64,000 nt of DNA from Phycisphaerae bacterium. GTDB taxonomy: Bacteria; Planctomycetota; Phycisphaerae; Sedimentisphaerales; Anaerobacaceae. The position numbers and the translations under genes were made by a program. Location of the stretch: NCBI GenBank assembly GCA_028714855.1, contig JAQTLP010000004.1, positions 80,158 to 144,157 of the forward strand. Reading direction: 5' to 3'. Below, in pieces: positions 2,714 to 25,075 of this stretch (positions are counted from its first letter, which is position 1; each line of letters begins with the position of its first letter). The notes beneath the pieces were generated by a model. That model did no database searches. It saw nothing but the letters and a program-made list of their open reading frames with translations, and was not told where the DNA came from.

Positions 2714-2914
2714 AGCAGGCTGACCCCTGCGGTGTGCGTATAGAAAATACGATTTTGAAAAAACCGATACCTATTATTCAGGGAAATCGGGCCTTGATGG
2801 GTCGGAAACGCCTACTCGATAGGACTTCTGAACACAAGCAACGATTACCCACTTGGAAATAATGGGTTTTCTTCAAAAGTTTTCTTACGGCACCGGCGGA
2901 GGAAAGCCTTGCAT
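2714..2914 (+). ncRNA. ssrS: 6S RNA (SsrS-type)
   Basis: About 200 bases of non-coding sequence fold as a long rod. The 5' arm GCAGGCT..CCCC..CGGTG.GCGTA (about 2715-2740) pairs with the 3' arm TACGGCACCG..GG..AGCCTTGC (about 2886-2912). The 3' side of the central bubble carries ACCCACTTGG with a returning GGGTTTTC, a pattern seen in many bacterial 6S RNAs. The family sequesters the housekeeping RNA polymerase holoenzyme by mimicking an open promoter. The gene has its own promoter upstream and an intrinsic terminator just downstream. Recognition is by eye; a covariance-model search (Rfam 6S) would be decisive. Confidence 0.72.
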
Positions 2915-3165: not shown

Positions 3166-5787
3166 ATGCCAAAAGTTTGTAGTTTTACGGTCTTACCCGC
3201 ATTGCCGGATGCTTTGAAAGCCCTTGAGGGTATTGCCCGGAATTTATTTTGGTGCTGGAACACCGACTTTATAGAGCTGTTTAAGCGCATTGACGGTGAC
3301 TTATGGGCAGCTTCCGGCCGTAATCCGGTCAAACTTCTCGCAAGTCTCCCGCAGCGTCGCATAAATGAATTGGCCCAAAATCAGGCGTTTTTGTCTGAAA
3401 TGCGGCGGGTTGAGGAAAAGCTGAAATCATATCTTGATGGGCCGACGTGGTTCGAAAAAAATTATTCAAGATCCGCCAAACCCGTTATCGCATACTTTTG
3501 TGCCGAGTTTGGAATTCATGAATGTTTGCCTTTTTATTCGGGCGGTTTGGGGCTTCTGGCAGGTGACCATTTAAAAAGCGCCTCTGACCTTGGTATTCCA
3601 TTGGTCGGCGTCGGTCTTCTCTATCAAAAAGGTTATTTCCGCCAGTATTTGGACGTCGAGGGCTGGCAGCAGGAAACGTATAGTGAAAGCGATTTCTACA
3701 GTATGCCGATCGAGCTGGTTAGGGACAGCAGCGGCCAGCCGTTGACTATCAGCGTGGAATTCCCGGACAGGGCTGTGCACGCCCAGATTTGGTCTGTTTC
3801 CGTAGGCAGGGTTAAATTGTATCTGTTGGATACCAACATACAGGCTAATTCGTCCACAGACCGTATGATTACATCCAGTTTATATGGCGGCGACGTTGAA
3901 ATGCGCATTCGCCAGGAGATTGTTTTGGGCATCGGCGGCTCAAGGGCCCTGGCGGCGATGGATATTAAGCCGGCCATCTGCCATATGAATGAGGGACACG
4001 CTGCTTTTATGGTGCTCGAACGAATCCGGCATCTGCGAAGCGAAACGAATATGACTTTTGCCGAGGCTGTTGAAGCCACCAAGGCCGGCAATGTTTTTAC
4101 GATACATACGCTTGTAAAAGCCGGTCTCGATGAATTTTCAGTCGAGCTCATCGATAAGTATTTTGCTAACTTCTTCCCGGCTCTTGGGATAAGCAGAGAG
4201 CAGTTTCTGTCGCTGGGCAGAATCCTTCCTGACGATGCCGGCGAGTCATTTAAAATGCCGATTTTGGCATTACGCCTCAGCAGTTTCGTAAACGGCGTAA
4301 GTAAATTGCATGGGCAGGTATCGCGCGAGGTATGGTCGAGTCTTTGGCCGGCGGTTCCTGTTAGTGAGGTCCCCATAATCTCGATTACAAACGGCGTACA
4401 TACTAAAAGCTGGCTGTCGGATGAAATGAGTTCTTTGTACGGAAGGTATCTTGGGCCGAATTGGACTGATGAAATCGTCAATAACACGGTTTGGGACGGC
4501 ATCGACCAAATTCCCGAAGAGGAATTCTGGCGGGTACATCAGCAGTGCAAAGGCCAGCTGATTGCTTTTACGCGTAACTGTCTTAAGGCCCAGGTAAAAC
4601 GCAGAGGTACTTACCATTCTGAATTGAACTGGGCTGAGGAGGTCCTCGATGTTGAGGCGCTGACGATTGGTTTTGCCAGAAGGTTTGTAAACTATAAAAG
4701 AGGCAATCTTCTGCTTAGAGACCCAGAGCGCTTCGTAAGGCTGCTTAATAACCCCGATAGACCTGTTCAGATTATTTTTGCAGGCAAAGCTCACCCGAGA
4801 GATACCGGAGGCAAAGAGATAGTACGTCAAATTATTAACTTTGCGTCAAAGTATGATGTCCAGCGACGCATCGTCTTTCTTGAGGATTATGATATTAATG
4901 TAGCCAGGATGTTAGTCCGCGGCGTGGATGTGTGGCTTAATAACCCTCGAAGACCTATGGAAGCCTGTGGAACAAGCGGTATGAAGGCGGCAATAAACGG
5001 TGCTTTGAATATGAGCACCCTGGATGGATGGTGGTGTGAAGGTTACAGGCCTGACGGGGGCTGGGCTATCGGTGCAGAGCAAACTTACAGCAACTCGGAT
5101 TATCAGGATGAGGTCGAAGCTCGGGCAGTCTATGACCTTCTCGAAAACGAGGTTATTCCTTTATTTTACACCCGCTCGGCGGATGACCTGCCGCGGGCTT
5201 GGATAAGCAGGGTTAAAAACTCAGTCAAATGGATAGCGCCGCGCTTCAACACTCACAGGATGGTTGCTGAGTACACACAAAGGTTTTATAACCCGGCTGC
5301 GGCTAAATGGCGTTATTTGACTGCGGAAGCTATGGCAAGAGCCAAGGTGCTTTCTACGTGGAAATCCAATATGAAGAAAGCCTGGCCTGAATTTGCCATT
5401 AAAGATGTGCAGATACAGGTTTATAATAATGGTGATGGCGGCAAACAGTTGGATATCAGGCAGCCGCAGCTCAAAGTCGGTTCGAAATTGTCTATCAGCG
5501 CACTGGTTAAGCTGCCTAAGGTTAGCCCGGATGATGTTTCAGTTGAGCTTTATCATGGGCCGGTAGATTCACATGGAAGTATTAGAAACGGCTCAATTGT
5601 GAGAATGGCTTACAAAGAAACTACAGACCGGGACAGTGAGCATTGGTTTGTCGGCTCGATGTCTTGTGGAGAAACAGGCCAGCATGGAGTGGCCGTGAGA
5701 GTTTTGCCCAGACACGCTGACCTTGTTAACCCATATGAGCTGGGCTTGGTTCTCTGGGAAACAACGGACGACACAAACGTTAAATAA
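3166..5787 (+). CDS. glgP: Alpha-glucan (glycogen/maltodextrin) phosphorylase, GT35
   Basis: Phosphorolysis of alpha-1,4-glucans to glucose-1-phosphate in the cytoplasm, using pyridoxal phosphate. I place the start at ATG 3166 because GGAGAGG lies 5 bases upstream; a more upstream in-frame start at 3130 has no such site. The protein has 873 residues. The first ~110 residues (PALPDALKALEGIARNLFW...) match the DUF3417 domain found at the N-terminus of the archaeal/actinobacterial-type short phosphorylases. The PLP signature EACGTSGMKAAINGALN is intact, with Lys in GMK as the Schiff-base residue. The C-terminal ~100 residues form an extra beta-rich tail typical of this subgroup. It stands alone, without glgC/glgA nearby. 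Confidence 0.93.
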   Translation: MPKVCSFTVLPALPDALKALEGIARNLFWCWNTDFIELFKRIDGDLWAASGRNPVKLLASLPQRRINELAQNQAFLSEMRRVEEKLKSYLDGPTWFEKNYSRSAKPVIAYFCAEFGIHECLPFYSGGLGLLAGDHLKSASDLGIPLVGVGLLYQKGYFRQYLDVEGWQQETYSESDFYSMPIELVRDSSGQPLTISVEFPDRAVHAQIWSVSVGRVKLYLLDTNIQANSSTDRMITSSLYGGDVEMRIRQEIVLGIGGSRALAAMDIKPAICHMNEGHAAFMVLERIRHLRSETNMTFAEAVEATKAGNVFTIHTLVKAGLDEFSVELIDKYFANFFPALGISREQFLSLGRILPDDAGESFKMPILALRLSSFVNGVSKLHGQVSREVWSSLWPAVPVSEVPIISITNGVHTKSWLSDEMSSLYGRYLGPNWTDEIVNNTVWDGIDQIPEEEFWRVHQQCKGQLIAFTRNCLKAQVKRRGTYHSELNWAEEVLDVEALTIGFARRFVNYKRGNLLLRDPERFVRLLNNPDRPVQIIFAGKAHPRDTGGKEIVRQIINFASKYDVQRRIVFLEDYDINVARMLVRGVDVWLNNPRRPMEACGTSGMKAAINGALNMSTLDGWWCEGYRPDGGWAIGAEQTYSNSDYQDEVEARAVYDLLENEVIPLFYTRSADDLPRAWISRVKNSVKWIAPRFNTHRMVAEYTQRFYNPAAAKWRYLTAEAMARAKVLSTWKSNMKKAWPEFAIKDVQIQVYNNGDGGKQLDIRQPQLKVGSKLSISALVKLPKVSPDDVSVELYHGPVDSHGSIRNGSIVRMAYKETTDRDSEHWFVGSMSCGETGQHGVAVRVLPRHADLVNPYELGLVLWETTDDTNVK

Positions 5788-22480: not shown

Positions 22481-22586
22481 GCCCCCCTGACTCGTGCCGG
22501 GGGGTACGTTACTTTATCTTGGGGGGGGGTAATGTCGTCCCTGTATAGACCGGGACAGGGGAAAATAGGGATAGTCACCTGTTTTT
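22481..22586. mobile_element. Hairpin cluster with G-runs, possible mobile-element scar
   Basis: A stem CCCCCC/GGGGGG (22482-22504), a run of nine G (22521-22529), a GTCCC-10-base loop-GGGAC hairpin (22537-22556) and the motif AAAATAGGGATAGTCACCTG (22562-22581) lie together between the hisA fragment and the next gene's stop codon. The last motif resembles short sequences I recall beside IS200/REP-associated transposase genes in Planctomycetota. No transposase is present. Identification as a scar is an inference. Confidence 0.3.
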
Positions 22587-23619
22587 ACTTTTTAACTTGC
22601 CTCCACAATTTCCAATCACGCCCAACTTCTGGGACCATATTTATCTGTATGCTATTGAATATGTTCGGGTTCTCTACAAGAGATTCCAAGGGGATGTCCA
22701 CTTCATAATTATAGAACCAGCGTCCCTTGAGCTGGTCTCCAGCGATGTCCCAGTACCCGATGCCACACATAGATGGAATATCGATCCATCGCCACTGAAA
22801 AACAATCCGAGAGGTGGTAAGTCGTCCTCTAATCTCTCCAACCCATTCCTCTTCATGATACTGGTACTTGCCAATAATGTCATAAGAATCTTGGGCAAGT
22901 CGAACAAAACCATGGTTGCTTTCCCACAAACCCGAGAAGTTTTGTTCTCGTTTTGCCATCATAGGTAATTGTAAGGCCGGCGTCTCGATACACTCTTGGA
23001 ATTTCTTCCACAGAAAGTCACTCTCTTTTCTGTAGGCGGCCATTTCTTCTATAATCTTGCCGGAAAGTTCCTCGAATTGATGAGCAAGTGTCTTCGCCCC
23101 GTGTGGCAACAGCCCTTGAATGGTGATACCTAGAGACTCAAGCACTCCGGAGATGGGGTTCTGGTACGAGTACGACTTCATTCCGTCGCCAACAAATGCG
23201 GCGAGTCTCTCCTTGGCCGAGTGTACACTGTCTAAATCCGTGTGATCAATCTTTATTGTATTGACATCTGACACATCAAATGGGATGGATTCACCTTTTT
23301 CAATAAGCTGGACAACTGGCTTCCCAATGAAATGTCTCACCGCAAGCTCGTAGTAGACGTTGGGATTAGCACCGGTCAGATCTGCTATCACTAAGTCTGC
23401 AGTGATGAGCTCACGCATTACACCCTGGGAAATAAGAAAAGGTTGCGTCATTTGGTCAGCACGGTATGCACTGAACCCAAGTTCCTCACAGACCGGTTTG
23501 ATGATGTGTCGCAGGATTTTGTCTGAACGACGACGGATATCAGAGTCATCGTCCCCAATGGGTGAGATGACAAAACATCGCTTATTTGGCGGCAATATCT
23601 TGCCACTTCGTGTTTTCAC
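22585..23619 (-). CDS. TIR/nucleoside 2-deoxyribosyltransferase-like protein with C-terminal beta-rich domain
   Basis: 344 residues. The N-terminal ~150 form a TIR/NDT-like Rossmann fold: KRCFVISPIGDDDSDIRRRS, then RADQM, then ADLVIADLTGANPNVYYELAVRH. The Glu of YYELAVRH sits where NAD- or nucleotide-cleaving members have their catalytic Glu. A helical linker (about 175-215) leads to a C-terminal domain (about 225-325: FSGLWESNHGFVRLAQDSYD through KGRWFYNYEV) that looks like a small beta-barrel. Similar N-terminal domains serve as effectors or sensors in anti-phage systems, but here the gene is alone. It is a defence candidate by inference only. It ends within the hairpin cluster and does not resemble its neighbours. 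Confidence 0.6.
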   Translation of the reverse strand: MKTRSGKILPPNKRCFVISPIGDDDSDIRRRSDKILRHIIKPVCEELGFSAYRADQMTQPFLISQGVMRELITADLVIADLTGANPNVYYELAVRHFIGKPVVQLIEKGESIPFDVSDVNTIKIDHTDLDSVHSAKERLAAFVGDGMKSYSYQNPISGVLESLGITIQGLLPHGAKTLAHQFEELSGKIIEEMAAYRKESDFLWKKFQECIETPALQLPMMAKREQNFSGLWESNHGFVRLAQDSYDIIGKYQYHEEEWVGEIRGRLTTSRIVFQWRWIDIPSMCGIGYWDIAGDQLKGRWFYNYEVDIPLESLVENPNIFNSIQINMVPEVGRDWKLWRQVKK

Positions 23620-23920: not shown

Positions 23921-24207
23921 TTTACCTCGCCGTCCTTTTGGCGTAGCGCAGACCTCGGCGTAGTGAAACGAAGACGGGCCCACAATCTCAAAATGACCTT
24001 GTCATCCTGAGCGAAGTCGATGTTAATTTAGGCAACTTTTAAACTTTTCTGTCGTCTGTCATCCGCCAAACTCTGTATGTAAAAAATCTACCCGCGAAGC
24101 GGCTCCACAATTTTGCATTTTGCACTTTGATTTTTAATTTTTCACACTTTTTTACCAATTTATACCATTTTTAAGCAGCTTTTTTGCTACCCCAAATTTC
24201 CCAAATT

Positions 24208-24305
24208 ACCTATTTTAACTAAAGTTTTTTCTTAACGCCTACCGATAGCTATACTACCTATTTTAACATTTTGCCTCGGTAGACACACAAGTTTGAGAAA
24301 ATAGG
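24208..24305. promoter_or_regulatory. Three CCTATTTT sites upstream of the B12-fold gene
   Basis: ACCTATTTTAAC occurs at 24208-24219 and again at 24256-24267, 48 bases apart. The inverse AAAATAGG is at 24298-24305, about 40 bases before the start codon. Repeated sites this close to a start suit an operator array. The binding protein is unknown. Confidence 0.35.
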
Positions 24306-24346
24306 CAACATATAACGATTGTAAAGCTATTTTGGAGACCTATATT

Positions 24347-25075
24347 ATGGCAACAGAAGCTGTTCTTGAGCGTTATTTAGACACTTTACTTCAGGGCGAC
24401 CGCAAGGCCTGCCGGGGCGTTATAGAGGAGTCCCTCCAGACCGGCACCCCAGCCAATTCCGTTTATTCCGATATTATCTGGCCTATTATGGTTGAAATCG
24501 AGCATTTAGTCCGTGCCGACAAGATTACGACCACTCAGGAGCATTTGGCCACTCGGATTAACCGCACAATCGTTGACCAGCTTCAGAACAAGCTGCCGCG
24601 TAAACCCCGTAAAGGCAAGAGGATAGTGATTTCCTGCGCCCAGGCTGAGCTGCAGGAACTCGGTGCTCAAATAATGGCGGACTTGTTCGAAAGCGATGGC
24701 TGGGAGGTCAAATTCCTCGGCGGCGGCCTGACTAGCGACGATATCCTTGCATTCATACACGAAAGTGCTCCCGATATTCTCCTAATCTACGGCAGCGAAC
24801 CAAAGCAGGCGCCTGATATCCGGCAACTCATTGACACAATTAGAGATATAAACGCCTGGCCCGATATGCGGATTATGGTATCAGGTGGGCTGTTTAACCG
24901 TGCAGAGGGGCTCTGGCAGGAAATTGGCGCCGATTTATTCGCCGCCACGGCACTCGAAGCCATCCAGGTAGCTTCACAAGACACACCAATCGAGCCGGAG
25001 GCAGGAACAGCAGGCCGGCGTAGAAAAAGAGGACTGCCGGCGGTTAAAAAAATACAAGTTCAAGTCCTGAAGTAA
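24347..25075 (+). CDS. B12-binding-fold protein without the cobalamin-ligating His
   Basis: Start ATG 24347 with GGAG 9 bases upstream. 242 residues: an N-terminal four-helix cap (about 1-85, like the B12-binding_2 domain of methyltransferase corrinoid proteins and CarH), then a Rossmann domain (about 90-215) and a basic tail (RRRKRG...). The canonical DxHxxG motif that ligates cobalt by its His reads ELQELG here, so Asp is Glu and His is Gln (Q103). The GGG phosphate loop (KFLGGGL) and SGG motif (IMVSGGLFN) are kept. It may therefore bind cobalamin base-on, bind another tetrapyrrole, or have lost the ligand. A regulatory role is possible; there is no methyltransferase nearby. Confidence 0.75.
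   Translation: MATEAVLERYLDTLLQGDRKACRGVIEESLQTGTPANSVYSDIIWPIMVEIEHLVRADKITTTQEHLATRINRTIVDQLQNKLPRKPRKGKRIVISCAQAELQELGAQIMADLFESDGWEVKFLGGGLTSDDILAFIHESAPDILLIYGSEPKQAPDIRQLIDTIRDINAWPDMRIMVSGGLFNRAEGLWQEIGADLFAATALEAIQVASQDTPIEPEAGTAGRRRKRGLPAVKKIQVQVLK

What the first reader, a model, noticed from the sequence alone, without database searches (positions are those of the whole stretch)
24347..25075. B12-binding fold with the cobalt-ligating His replaced by Gln
The canonical DxHxxG motif reads ELQELG. The remaining fold (helical cap plus Rossmann domain, GGG and SGG loops) is intact, so the protein has kept a cofactor-type pocket but lost the base-off ligand. It may bind cobalamin differently, bind heme or act as a ligand-free regulator. 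Repeated CCTATTTT sites lie just upstream.
Basis: partly seen in the sequence, partly recalled or inferred. Interest (0 to 1): 0.55.

Follow-up and report, generated by a model that had tools for sequence, protein, structure and literature searches.

The report
Vitamin-B12 sensor fold, cobalt site lost
A protein shaped like bacterial vitamin-B12 light sensors has, across one class of planctomycete bacteria, lost the residues that hold the vitamin while keeping the fold and a conserved promoter-like switch, so it probably does a new, B12-free job although protein-family databases match it as B12-binding.

Summary
In detail: window 24347-25075 encodes a 242-aa B12-binding_2 + B12-binding protein whose ligand His is Gln103 (ELQELG). 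Gln is neither a local mutation nor a replacement ligand. In 142 aligned class relatives the position is E58 Q37 D16 A9 G7 S7 H5 N2 P1. The loss goes deeper: the motif Ser near the cobalamin tail (Tyr148 here) is Y/F/H in 138 of 142 and Ser in none; the Trp of Wx9EH is kept in 2 of 142. Of 19 canonical relatives 18 keep Wx9EH and 19 the His. Trees without these columns give one Ser-to-large change and a well-supported clade. The predicted fold is intact (photocobilin 8j2w, Z 24.2), with clade-specific invariants (Arg159, Arg185) and a basic tail.

Upstream is a sigma28-like box pair with unusual N17 spacing (order 43 of 49; rest of class 21 of 73); flagellin promoters of the order have N15 (22 of 24 matched, 28 examined). 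A similar N17 pair precedes an order-wide ParA-glycogen-binding fusion (19 of 29). Best reading: a cobalamin-independent regulator descended from B12 photosensors. New variant of a known kind.

The parts
24347..25075 (+). CDS, 242 aa, B12-binding fold protein with degenerate cobalamin site
   Evidence: start ATG shared by orthologues
24334..24337 (+). likely ribosome-binding site GGAG
   Evidence: read directly
24356..24592 (+). four-helix cap (residues 4-82; B12-binding_2)
24620..24976 (+). Rossmann-type domain (residues 92-210; B12-binding)
24479..24481 (+). Trp45, 140 of 142 in clade, 0 of 19 in canonical relatives
24509..24511 (+). Val55 at the Trp position of Wx9EH; Trp lost
24539..24544 (+). 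Glu65-His66, the EH of Wx9EH, retained here
24647..24664 (+). degenerate ligand motif ELQELG (residues 101-106); Gln103 codon CAG at 24653-24655
24668..24670 (+). Gln108, 138 of 142 in clade (Arg or Lys in 15 of 19 canonical relatives)
24788..24790 (+). Tyr148 in place of the Ser of the SxT/V motif (exactly x41 after G106)
   Evidence: motif definition PMC9304148 (passages)
24821..24823 (+). Arg159, 142 of 142 in clade, 2 of 19 canonical
24881..24889 (+). SGG loop (residues 179-181); second Gly 142 of 142 in clade, 3 of 19 canonical
24899..24901 (+). Arg185, 142 of 142 in clade, 4 of 19 canonical
24992..25072 (+). C-terminal tail predicted disordered (residues 216-242), basic
   Evidence: pLDDT below 50 for 216-242; basic tail in 125 of 141 clade members
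24220..24247 (+). sigma28-like box pair TAAAG (24220-24224), N17, CCGATA (24242-24247)
24206..24219 (+). TTACCTATTTTAAC, abuts the TAAAG box; over-represented genome motif
24256..24267 (+). second copy ACCTATTTTAAC just downstream of the CCGATA box
24298..24305 (-). inverted CCTATTTT
24022..24035 (-). further copy TTGCCTAAATTAAC upstream

Best explanation
A cobalamin-independent regulatory protein descended from a CarH/photocobilin-type B12 photosensor. SHOWN by sequence: the fold family and ancestry; clade-wide loss of the three residues that such sensors use (lower-ligand His, tail-pocket Ser, upper-face Trp); new clade-wide invariants; a basic tail predicted disordered; one close copy per order genome where found, with a conserved sigma28-like box pair of N17 spacing that a ParA-glycogen-binding ATPase gene also has. 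INFERRED: it works as an apo-protein, probably a dimer or partner-docking module, as the B12-free relative CarA or the AppA SCHIC domain (which docks on PpsR) do. The basic tail touches nucleic acid or an acidic partner. The gene is switched on by the FliA/WhiG-family sigma factor together with parA-CBM48, possibly in glycogen-storage physiology. Light and B12 are not expected to affect it.
For: Ligand position is 9 different residues, His in 5 of 142; Ser position Y76 F60 V3 H2 L1; Trp in 2 of 142. In 19 canonical outgroup sequences the ligand is His and Trp is present in 19 of 19. Trees built without these columns: clade against canonical outgroup support 100/99 and 100, Ser change inferred once in each. 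R159, R185 and E192 are 142 of 142 in the clade and 2, 4 and 3 of 19 in the outgroup, so the protein is under constraint and not decaying. At least 5 K/R in a 10-aa window of the tail in 125 of 141. Fold: photocobilin Z 24.2, AerR 19.7, AppA SCHIC 19.2. Up to 162 of 198 class genomes carry it (163 matches, at least one of them a canonical paralogue). N17 box pair: 43 of 49 order upstreams, 0 at spacings 12-16 and 18-22, shuffle mean 0.035; 21 of 73 upstreams elsewhere in the class, 2 at N16, 0 at the other nine spacings tried. parA-CBM48: 19 of 29 at N17, mostly CCGAA rather than CCGAT, 1 at N16, 1 at N22, shuffle mean 0.065; of five further loci N17 in G000, G013, G031, G058 and N16 in G001. 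G039, G044 and G048 lack the close orthologue, a FliA/WhiG sigma above cut-off and the ParA fusion. Precedent for B12-free use of the fold: CarA lost Wx9EH (PMC9304148, passages).
Against: No ligand-binding experiment. B12-dependent radical SAM Mmp10 binds cobalamin with neither DxHxxG nor SxL (PMC8828468, passages), so missing motifs do not prove missing cofactor; that domain is only marginally Rossmann-like. E101, the GG loop and, in the window's family, EH are retained. L056 and L242, attached at the unresolved base of the clade, keep the His. Tail function and partner are guesses; no class-wide conserved operon partner was found. A box upstream of the sigma gene itself in G000 has N15 spacing, so spacing alone does not assign the sigma factor. 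50 of 73 class upstreams showed no box pair at any spacing tried with the strict pattern, and no shuffled control was run for that set. Of 57 matches to a looser N17 pattern in 61 genomes, 28 lie before neither gene; the 30 loci clustered held 9 singletons and no third recurrent target. The co-absence is not phylogeny-corrected, and exceptions exist: G013, G020, G021, G036 (and G002, with a truncated sigma match) have the sigma without the gene; G011, G024, G026 the gene without a strong match of that sigma type.
Confidence: 0.55

Rival explanations
1. It still binds cobalamin, but His-off or base-on, the polar residue at 103 (E/Q/D in 111 of 142) holding a water under the cobalt, and remains a B12 or light sensor.
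For: Cobalamin proteins without DxHxxG and SxL exist (Mmp10, PMC8828468, passages); E101 (119 E and 12 D of 142) and the GG loop persist, though the second Gly is kept in only 3 of 19 canonical relatives; position 103 is mostly a polar hydrogen-bonding residue; EH retained in the window's family.
Against: The Ser position is Tyr/Phe/His in 138 of 142; in AerR a Thr hydroxyl that I take to be at this position contacts cobalamin, with Ser or Ala in MetH and CarH (PMC9144470, passages). The Trp that stacks on the adenosyl ribose in photocobilin (PMC10979010, passages) is kept in 2 of 142. Position 103 is also A, G, S, N, P.
Confidence: 0.2
2. The remodelled pocket binds a different small ligand, for instance a nucleotide or a second messenger, with Tyr/Phe148 stacking and Arg159 and Arg185 contacting phosphate; it is a ligand-gated regulator.
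For: Clade-specific near-invariant Arg159, Arg185, Gln108, Asp131 and Tyr/Phe148, several of them next to the old motif positions in sequence.
Confidence: 0.15
3. It is a heme or other tetrapyrrole protein like the AppA SCHIC domain.
For: AppA SCHIC is a fold match (Z 19.2) and binds heme via a His shifted by two positions (PMC9144470, passages). Position 97, six residues before the ligand position, is Cys here and C, H or M in 80% of the clade.
Against: No His between residues 67 and 137 of the window protein; His66 is kept in 104 of 142; no C/H/M position exceeds 80% of the clade.
Confidence: 0.05
4. Ordinary divergence: a decaying or neutral paralogue whose B12 site is eroding.
For: The ligand position drifts among 9 residues; 23 inferred changes on the tree.
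Against: Up to 162 of 198 class genomes of at least 90% completeness keep it; full-length order orthologues are 53-88% identical to the window protein; 34 of 211 columns are at least 90% identical class-wide; conserved promoter-like element.
Confidence: 0.04

Closest known systems
Photocobilins (SasPcob 8j2w/8j2x, AbPcob 8j2y)
   Same: Closest solved relatives by sequence (E 9e-19) and first by Z (24.2); same cap plus Rossmann unit
   Different: No Trp, no ligand His, no motif Ser, and no globin/bilin domain (242 aa in all)
CarH / CtMerR B12 photoreceptor domains
   Same: Fold (8jbs Z 21.1, 5c8e Z 18.6); EH of Wx9EH kept in the window protein
   Different: No MerR DNA-binding domain; ligand His, Trp and Ser lost
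CarA of Myxococcus
   Same: A B12-independent descendant of a B12 photosensor that lost Wx9EH (PMC9304148, passages)
   Different: CarA keeps the lower B12 motif and a MerR domain; here the lower motif is lost too
AppA SCHIC domain / AerR
   Same: Fold (Z 19.2 and 19.7); co-regulators that act on a transcription factor
   Different: AppA has a shifted heme His and an inserted loop; AerR keeps ligand His145 (PMC9144470, passages)
Sigma28 (FliA/WhiG) promoters
   Same: TAAAG and CCGATA boxes; consensus TAAAGTTT-n11-GCCGATAA (PMC2859248, passage)
   Different: Spacing N17 instead of N15, and no trailing AA here; flagellin genes of the same order have N15, mostly with TTAAG

Membership tests
Pfam B12-binding (PF02310) + B12-binding_2 (PF02607) | score above the curated cut-off | tested here: met
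   46.0 and 45.6 bits against 32.1 and 23
B12 photoreceptor domain (CarH/photocobilin) | cap plus Rossmann fold | tested here: met
   Z 24.2 to 8j2w, predicted model
B12 photoreceptor domain (CarH/photocobilin) | E/DxH lower-ligand His | tested here: not met
   Gln103; His in 5 of 142 relatives
B12 photoreceptor domain (CarH/photocobilin) | Wx9EH | tested here: not met
   Val55; EH present
B12 photoreceptor domain (CarH/photocobilin) | SxT/V motif | tested here: not met
   Tyr148 at x41 after G106
B12 photoreceptor domain (CarH/photocobilin) | GG motif | tested here: met
   G180-G181
B12 photoreceptor domain (CarH/photocobilin) | cobalamin binding and light response | not testable with these tools
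   needs purified protein
CarA (B12-independent CarH paralogue) | MerR DNA-binding domain and retained lower B12 motif | tested here: not met
   no such domain in the Pfam scan at E 1; Gln103 and Tyr148
AppA SCHIC (heme) | heme-ligating His near the motif | tested here: not met
   no His in residues 67-137
Canonical sigma28 promoter | TAAAG and CCGATA boxes | tested here: met
   24220-24247
Canonical sigma28 promoter | N15 between TAAAG and CCGAT | tested here: not met
   N17 in 43 of 49 order upstreams, N15 in 0 of 49

The most novel reading that the evidence does not exclude
Phycisphaerae carry a class-wide, cofactor-free (or cofactor-swapped) offshoot of the B12 photosensor fold that is co-regulated, by a sigma28-family factor reading promoters with a 2-bp longer spacer than flagellar ones, with a ParA ATPase fused to a glycogen-binding module: a regulon of a former motility/sporulation sigma redirected, also in species without flagellin, to positioning or managing glycogen.
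Probability: 0.3. Interest if true: 0.7.

Novelty: new variant of a known kind. Interest (0 to 1): 0.5.

Why it matters
Family models call these proteins B12-binding; for about four fifths of the sampled genomes of a bacterial class (up to 162 of 198) that inference is probably wrong. The family gives a stepwise case of a cofactor fold losing its cofactor site while gaining new fixed residues, with candidates for intermediates (L056, L242) that keep the His but already have the aromatic residue. The N17 box pair, shared with ParA-CBM48, makes a small regulon directly testable in bacteria where little regulation is known (the last from general knowledge).

Tried and rejected
Local mutation: rejected, Gln in 37 of 142 and non-His in 137 of 142. 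Misalignment: the spacing x41 from G106 to the motif Ser and the GG loop fit. Operon partner: none conserved. Within about 5 kb in 27 order loci: MlaE 10, ABC ATPase 10, LeuA/homocitrate-synthase-like 7, PTS EIIA 7, alpha-glucan phosphorylase 7, in either orientation (names); elsewhere in the class an M48 peptidase (7 of 11 loci) and a UbiE methyltransferase (8 of 11), often divergent (these groups also hold antisense frames, so the counts are of the group, not of checked genes). The apparent 11-of-11 neighbour (group 1) was the antisense frame of the gene itself, by the coordinates. RNA element upstream: no consensus structure for 14 sequences and no Rfam match there at the gathering score. 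CCTATTTT motif as private to this gene: rejected, TTRCCYAWWTTAAC occurs 16 times in the genome against 0 for the reversed control, 13 of 16 outside ORFs of 80 aa or more. Plasmid collection: 17 records with distant relatives below 60% identity. A wide box search (TAAA-N13..22-CCGATA) in the own genome was near background (108 against 79), so the N17 claim rests on conservation and not on single-genome counts. Literature: no paper with B12-binding + Phycisphaerae, Planctomycetes + CarH + B12-binding, or Sedimentisphaerales + cobalamin (open-licence PMC only). Papers were seen as an outline (PMC10979010), passages, one section (PMC11796333) or listings, none in whole.

Caveats on counts. The 142 were set apart by residue 148 being large, which is circular for the Ser count; the trees, built without that column, give the same split (73 and 141 rows; one Ser change). 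Dropped before the trees: L002, L048, L057. In one search one of the 43 (L022) lies about 297 bp upstream and may be spurious. In one search the 23 order rows include the same genome twice (L165/L204, L166/L209, L167/L210) and repeat some, so I rely on its 73 class rows. In one search, 30 loci were given and one (L355) had no start found; two with no hit (L344, L348) show CCGAC at N17 by eye. In one search, 30 flagellin loci were held, 28 examined, 24 matched (22 at N15, 2 at N16) with a looser pattern than one search's. In one search the reversed control gave 5 matches against 35. In one search I called the WhiG-like sigma present at 230 bits or more, or truncated (G002, G052), and counted G004's contig-edge fragment as the gene.

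Full report
WHAT IS THERE. In the own genome the only other match is a separate corrinoid-like protein with intact DxHxxG (G000:C3, E 0.066, 18% identity). The closest solved structures by sequence are photocobilins 8j2w/8j2x/8j2y and the CtMerR B12 domain.

THE LIGAND. In the alignment with photocobilins Gln103 takes the place of the ligand His. Orthologues were sought in relatives (61 genomes; 26 public contigs), the phylum (294 genomes) and the class (198 genomes of at least 90% completeness). Matches at E 1e-20 or better were found in 163 of 198 class genomes; at least one of these (G039) is a canonical paralogue, so the family is in up to 162. Among 142 non-identical clade members the ligand position is E58, Q37, D16, A9, G7, S7, H5, N2, P1, a column more variable than 70% of columns 4-210. 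Gln is the usual residue only around the window's own family. Five members, plus the truncated L057, have His.

WHAT ELSE IS LOST. The full motif of such sensors is D/ExHx2G/P-x41-SxT/V-x22-27-GG with Wx9EH in the cap (PMC9304148, passages). In the window protein the Ser position, exactly 41 residues after G106, is Tyr148. In the clade it is Y76, F60, V3, H2, L1 and never Ser. The Trp is Val55; Trp survives in 2 of 142. In 19 canonical relatives (from the phylum and class samples and the order, L174, L175, L176 and L177 among them) Trp and ligand His are present in 19 of 19, EH in 18 of 19, and Ser or Ala in 19 of 19. In AerR a Thr hydroxyl contacts cobalamin, where MetH and CarH have Ser or Ala (PMC9144470, passages); I take this to be the same position. 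A large aromatic residue there is a second, independent reason to doubt cobalamin binding.

HISTORY. A careful tree of 92 sequences (columns of interest removed) separates the clade from the canonical sequences with support 100/99; the Ser-to-large change is inferred once and ligand changes 16 times. A quick tree of 160 sequences agrees: one Ser change, 23 ligand changes. L056 and L242, which keep His but already have Phe/Tyr and no Trp, pair with each other (SH-aLRT 99) and attach at the unresolved base of the clade, which suggests, without proving it, that Trp and Ser went first. His in L018, L025 and L028 is nested among Gln members, one base away (CAG against CAT/CAC), and is more likely regained than kept (inference).

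WHAT WAS GAINED. R159, R185 and E192 are 142 of 142 in the clade and 2, 4 and 3 of 19 in the outgroup; W45 is 140 against 0; Q108 138 against 3; D131 137 against 1. The C-terminal tail is predicted disordered (216-242) and basic: at least five K/R in ten residues in 125 of 141 clade members against 1 of 6 canonical sequences that could be scored. The protein is constrained, but for something else.

STRUCTURE. AlphaFold2 from 21 aligned sequences: mean pLDDT 85.7, pTM 0.80. By VIA-align the photocobilins come first (8j2w_A Z 24.2, rmsd 3.0, 211 residues), then MetH (22.2), a corrinoid protein and CtMerR (21.1 each), AerR (19.7), AppA SCHIC (19.2) and CarH (18.6); Foldseek by E-value puts CtMerR and photocobilins first.

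THE UPSTREAM SITES. The repeated CCTATTTT is part of something larger. At 24220-24247 lies TAAAG-N17-CCGATA. Among 49 non-identical order upstreams, T(A/C)AAG-N17-CCGAT occurs in 43 and at no other spacing from 12 to 22; shuffles give 0.035. It also occurs in 21 of 73 upstreams elsewhere in the class, with 2 at N16 and none at the other spacings (no shuffle run there). No RNA structure is predicted. The boxes match the sigma28 consensus TAAAGTTT-n11-GCCGATAA (PMC2859248, passage) except that the spacer is two bases longer and the trailing AA is missing; flagellin genes of the same order have N15 in 22 of 24 matched promoters, 28 examined. The extended form TTTTAAC+TMAAG-N17-CCGAT (up to one mismatch) occurs 35 times in 34 of 61 genomes (reversed control 5), 34 of them before this gene.

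A SHARED PROMOTER. A looser form gave 57 matches in 39 of 61 genomes (reversed control 6), 25 of them before this gene by my count of coordinates. Clustering the downstream genes of the 30 loci returned (17 this gene, 9 singletons) gave one other recurrent target, four times: a ParA-type ATPase (AAA_31, E 1e-50) with a C-terminal AMPK1_CBM/CBM_48 glycogen-binding module. Matches to that fusion protein at E 1e-60 are in 54 of 61 relatives; two of them (G020, G025) are 42-43% identical over the ATPase part only and are probably paralogues, and in many others the match is reported over the ATPase part alone, so the module was not checked in each. Its upstreams carry TAAAG-N17-CCGA(A/T), mostly CCGAA, in 19 of 29, with 1 at N16 and 1 at N22; of five further loci four have N17, G000 among them, and G001 N16. 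G000 and G001 have no flagellin match, yet G000 has a FliA/WhiG-family sigma (267 bits, cut-off 189.6; nearest NCBIfam model WhiG, below that model's own cut-off). Three near-complete genomes of family f4 (G039, G044, G048) lack the close orthologue, any FliA/WhiG match over the cut-off and the ParA fusion. Gene and WhiG-like sigma co-occur more than expected in 61 genomes (48/3/5/5, Fisher p 0.002, not corrected for kinship or completeness). Against a strict rule: in G000 the sigma gene itself is preceded by an N15 box, exceptions exist in both directions, and 28 of the 57 looser matches lie before neither gene. WhiG switches elsewhere are c-di-GMP controlled (PMC8325347, passages); nothing of that was tested here.

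NEIGHBOURS. In the window MlaE and an ABC ATPase follow on the same strand. In 27 order loci, within about 5 kb (the window with more), MlaE and the ABC ATPase occur in 10 each, and PTS EIIA, alpha-glucan phosphorylase and a LeuA/homocitrate-synthase-like gene in 7 each, in varying orientation. In 11 loci from the rest of the class groups holding a UbiE methyltransferase (8) and an M48 peptidase (7) recur, often divergent. So it looks like a stand-alone gene. The phosphorylase neighbourhood and the ParA-CBM48 promoter both point loosely to glycogen.

VERDICT. A real, lineage-wide loss of the cobalamin-site residues in a B12-sensor fold, with a conserved and unusual promoter-like element. The best-supported function is a B12-independent regulator (0.55). 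It would work like CarA or AppA in using the fold without canonical cobalamin, but it is a member of neither, since defining features were tested and not met.

Noticed in passing
L321:1627-2937 (G009); G000 copy at L369:1486-2871: Order-wide ParA-type ATPase, in the two copies scanned fused to a glycogen-binding AMPK1_CBM/CBM_48 module, preceded by the same N17 sigma28-like boxes in 19 of 29 loci; possibly positions glycogen granules.
   Followed up: partly
genome-wide; in the window 24022-24035, 24206-24219, and 24256-24267 (one base off the full pattern): TTRCCYAWWTTAAC occurs 16 times in the 2.3-Mb genome against 0 for the reversed control, mostly between genes; looks like the operator of an unidentified regulator.
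   Followed up: partly
L163:3029-3808 (-) and 3962-4384 (-): FliA/WhiG-family sigma in a genome without flagellin match, preceded by an N15 sigma28 box and by a small ORF that looks like a FlgB remnant (resemblance recalled; no Pfam match).
   Followed up: partly
L174, L176, L177 (G039, G048, G044): Three genomes of the same order lack a close member of this family but carry a B12-photosensor-like protein with Trp, EH, ligand His and Ser intact.
   Followed up: partly
L056: Contig labelled Actinomycetota carries a member of this otherwise planctomycete clade, pairing with class member L242; probably a binning error.
   Followed up: no
window 2721-2906 (+): 6S RNA, Rfam RF00013, 62.8 bits.
   Followed up: no
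window 22585-23619 (-): 344-aa ORF upstream on the other strand (CFVISPIGDDDSDIRRRSDKIL...) with no Pfam match at E 0.001.
   Followed up: no
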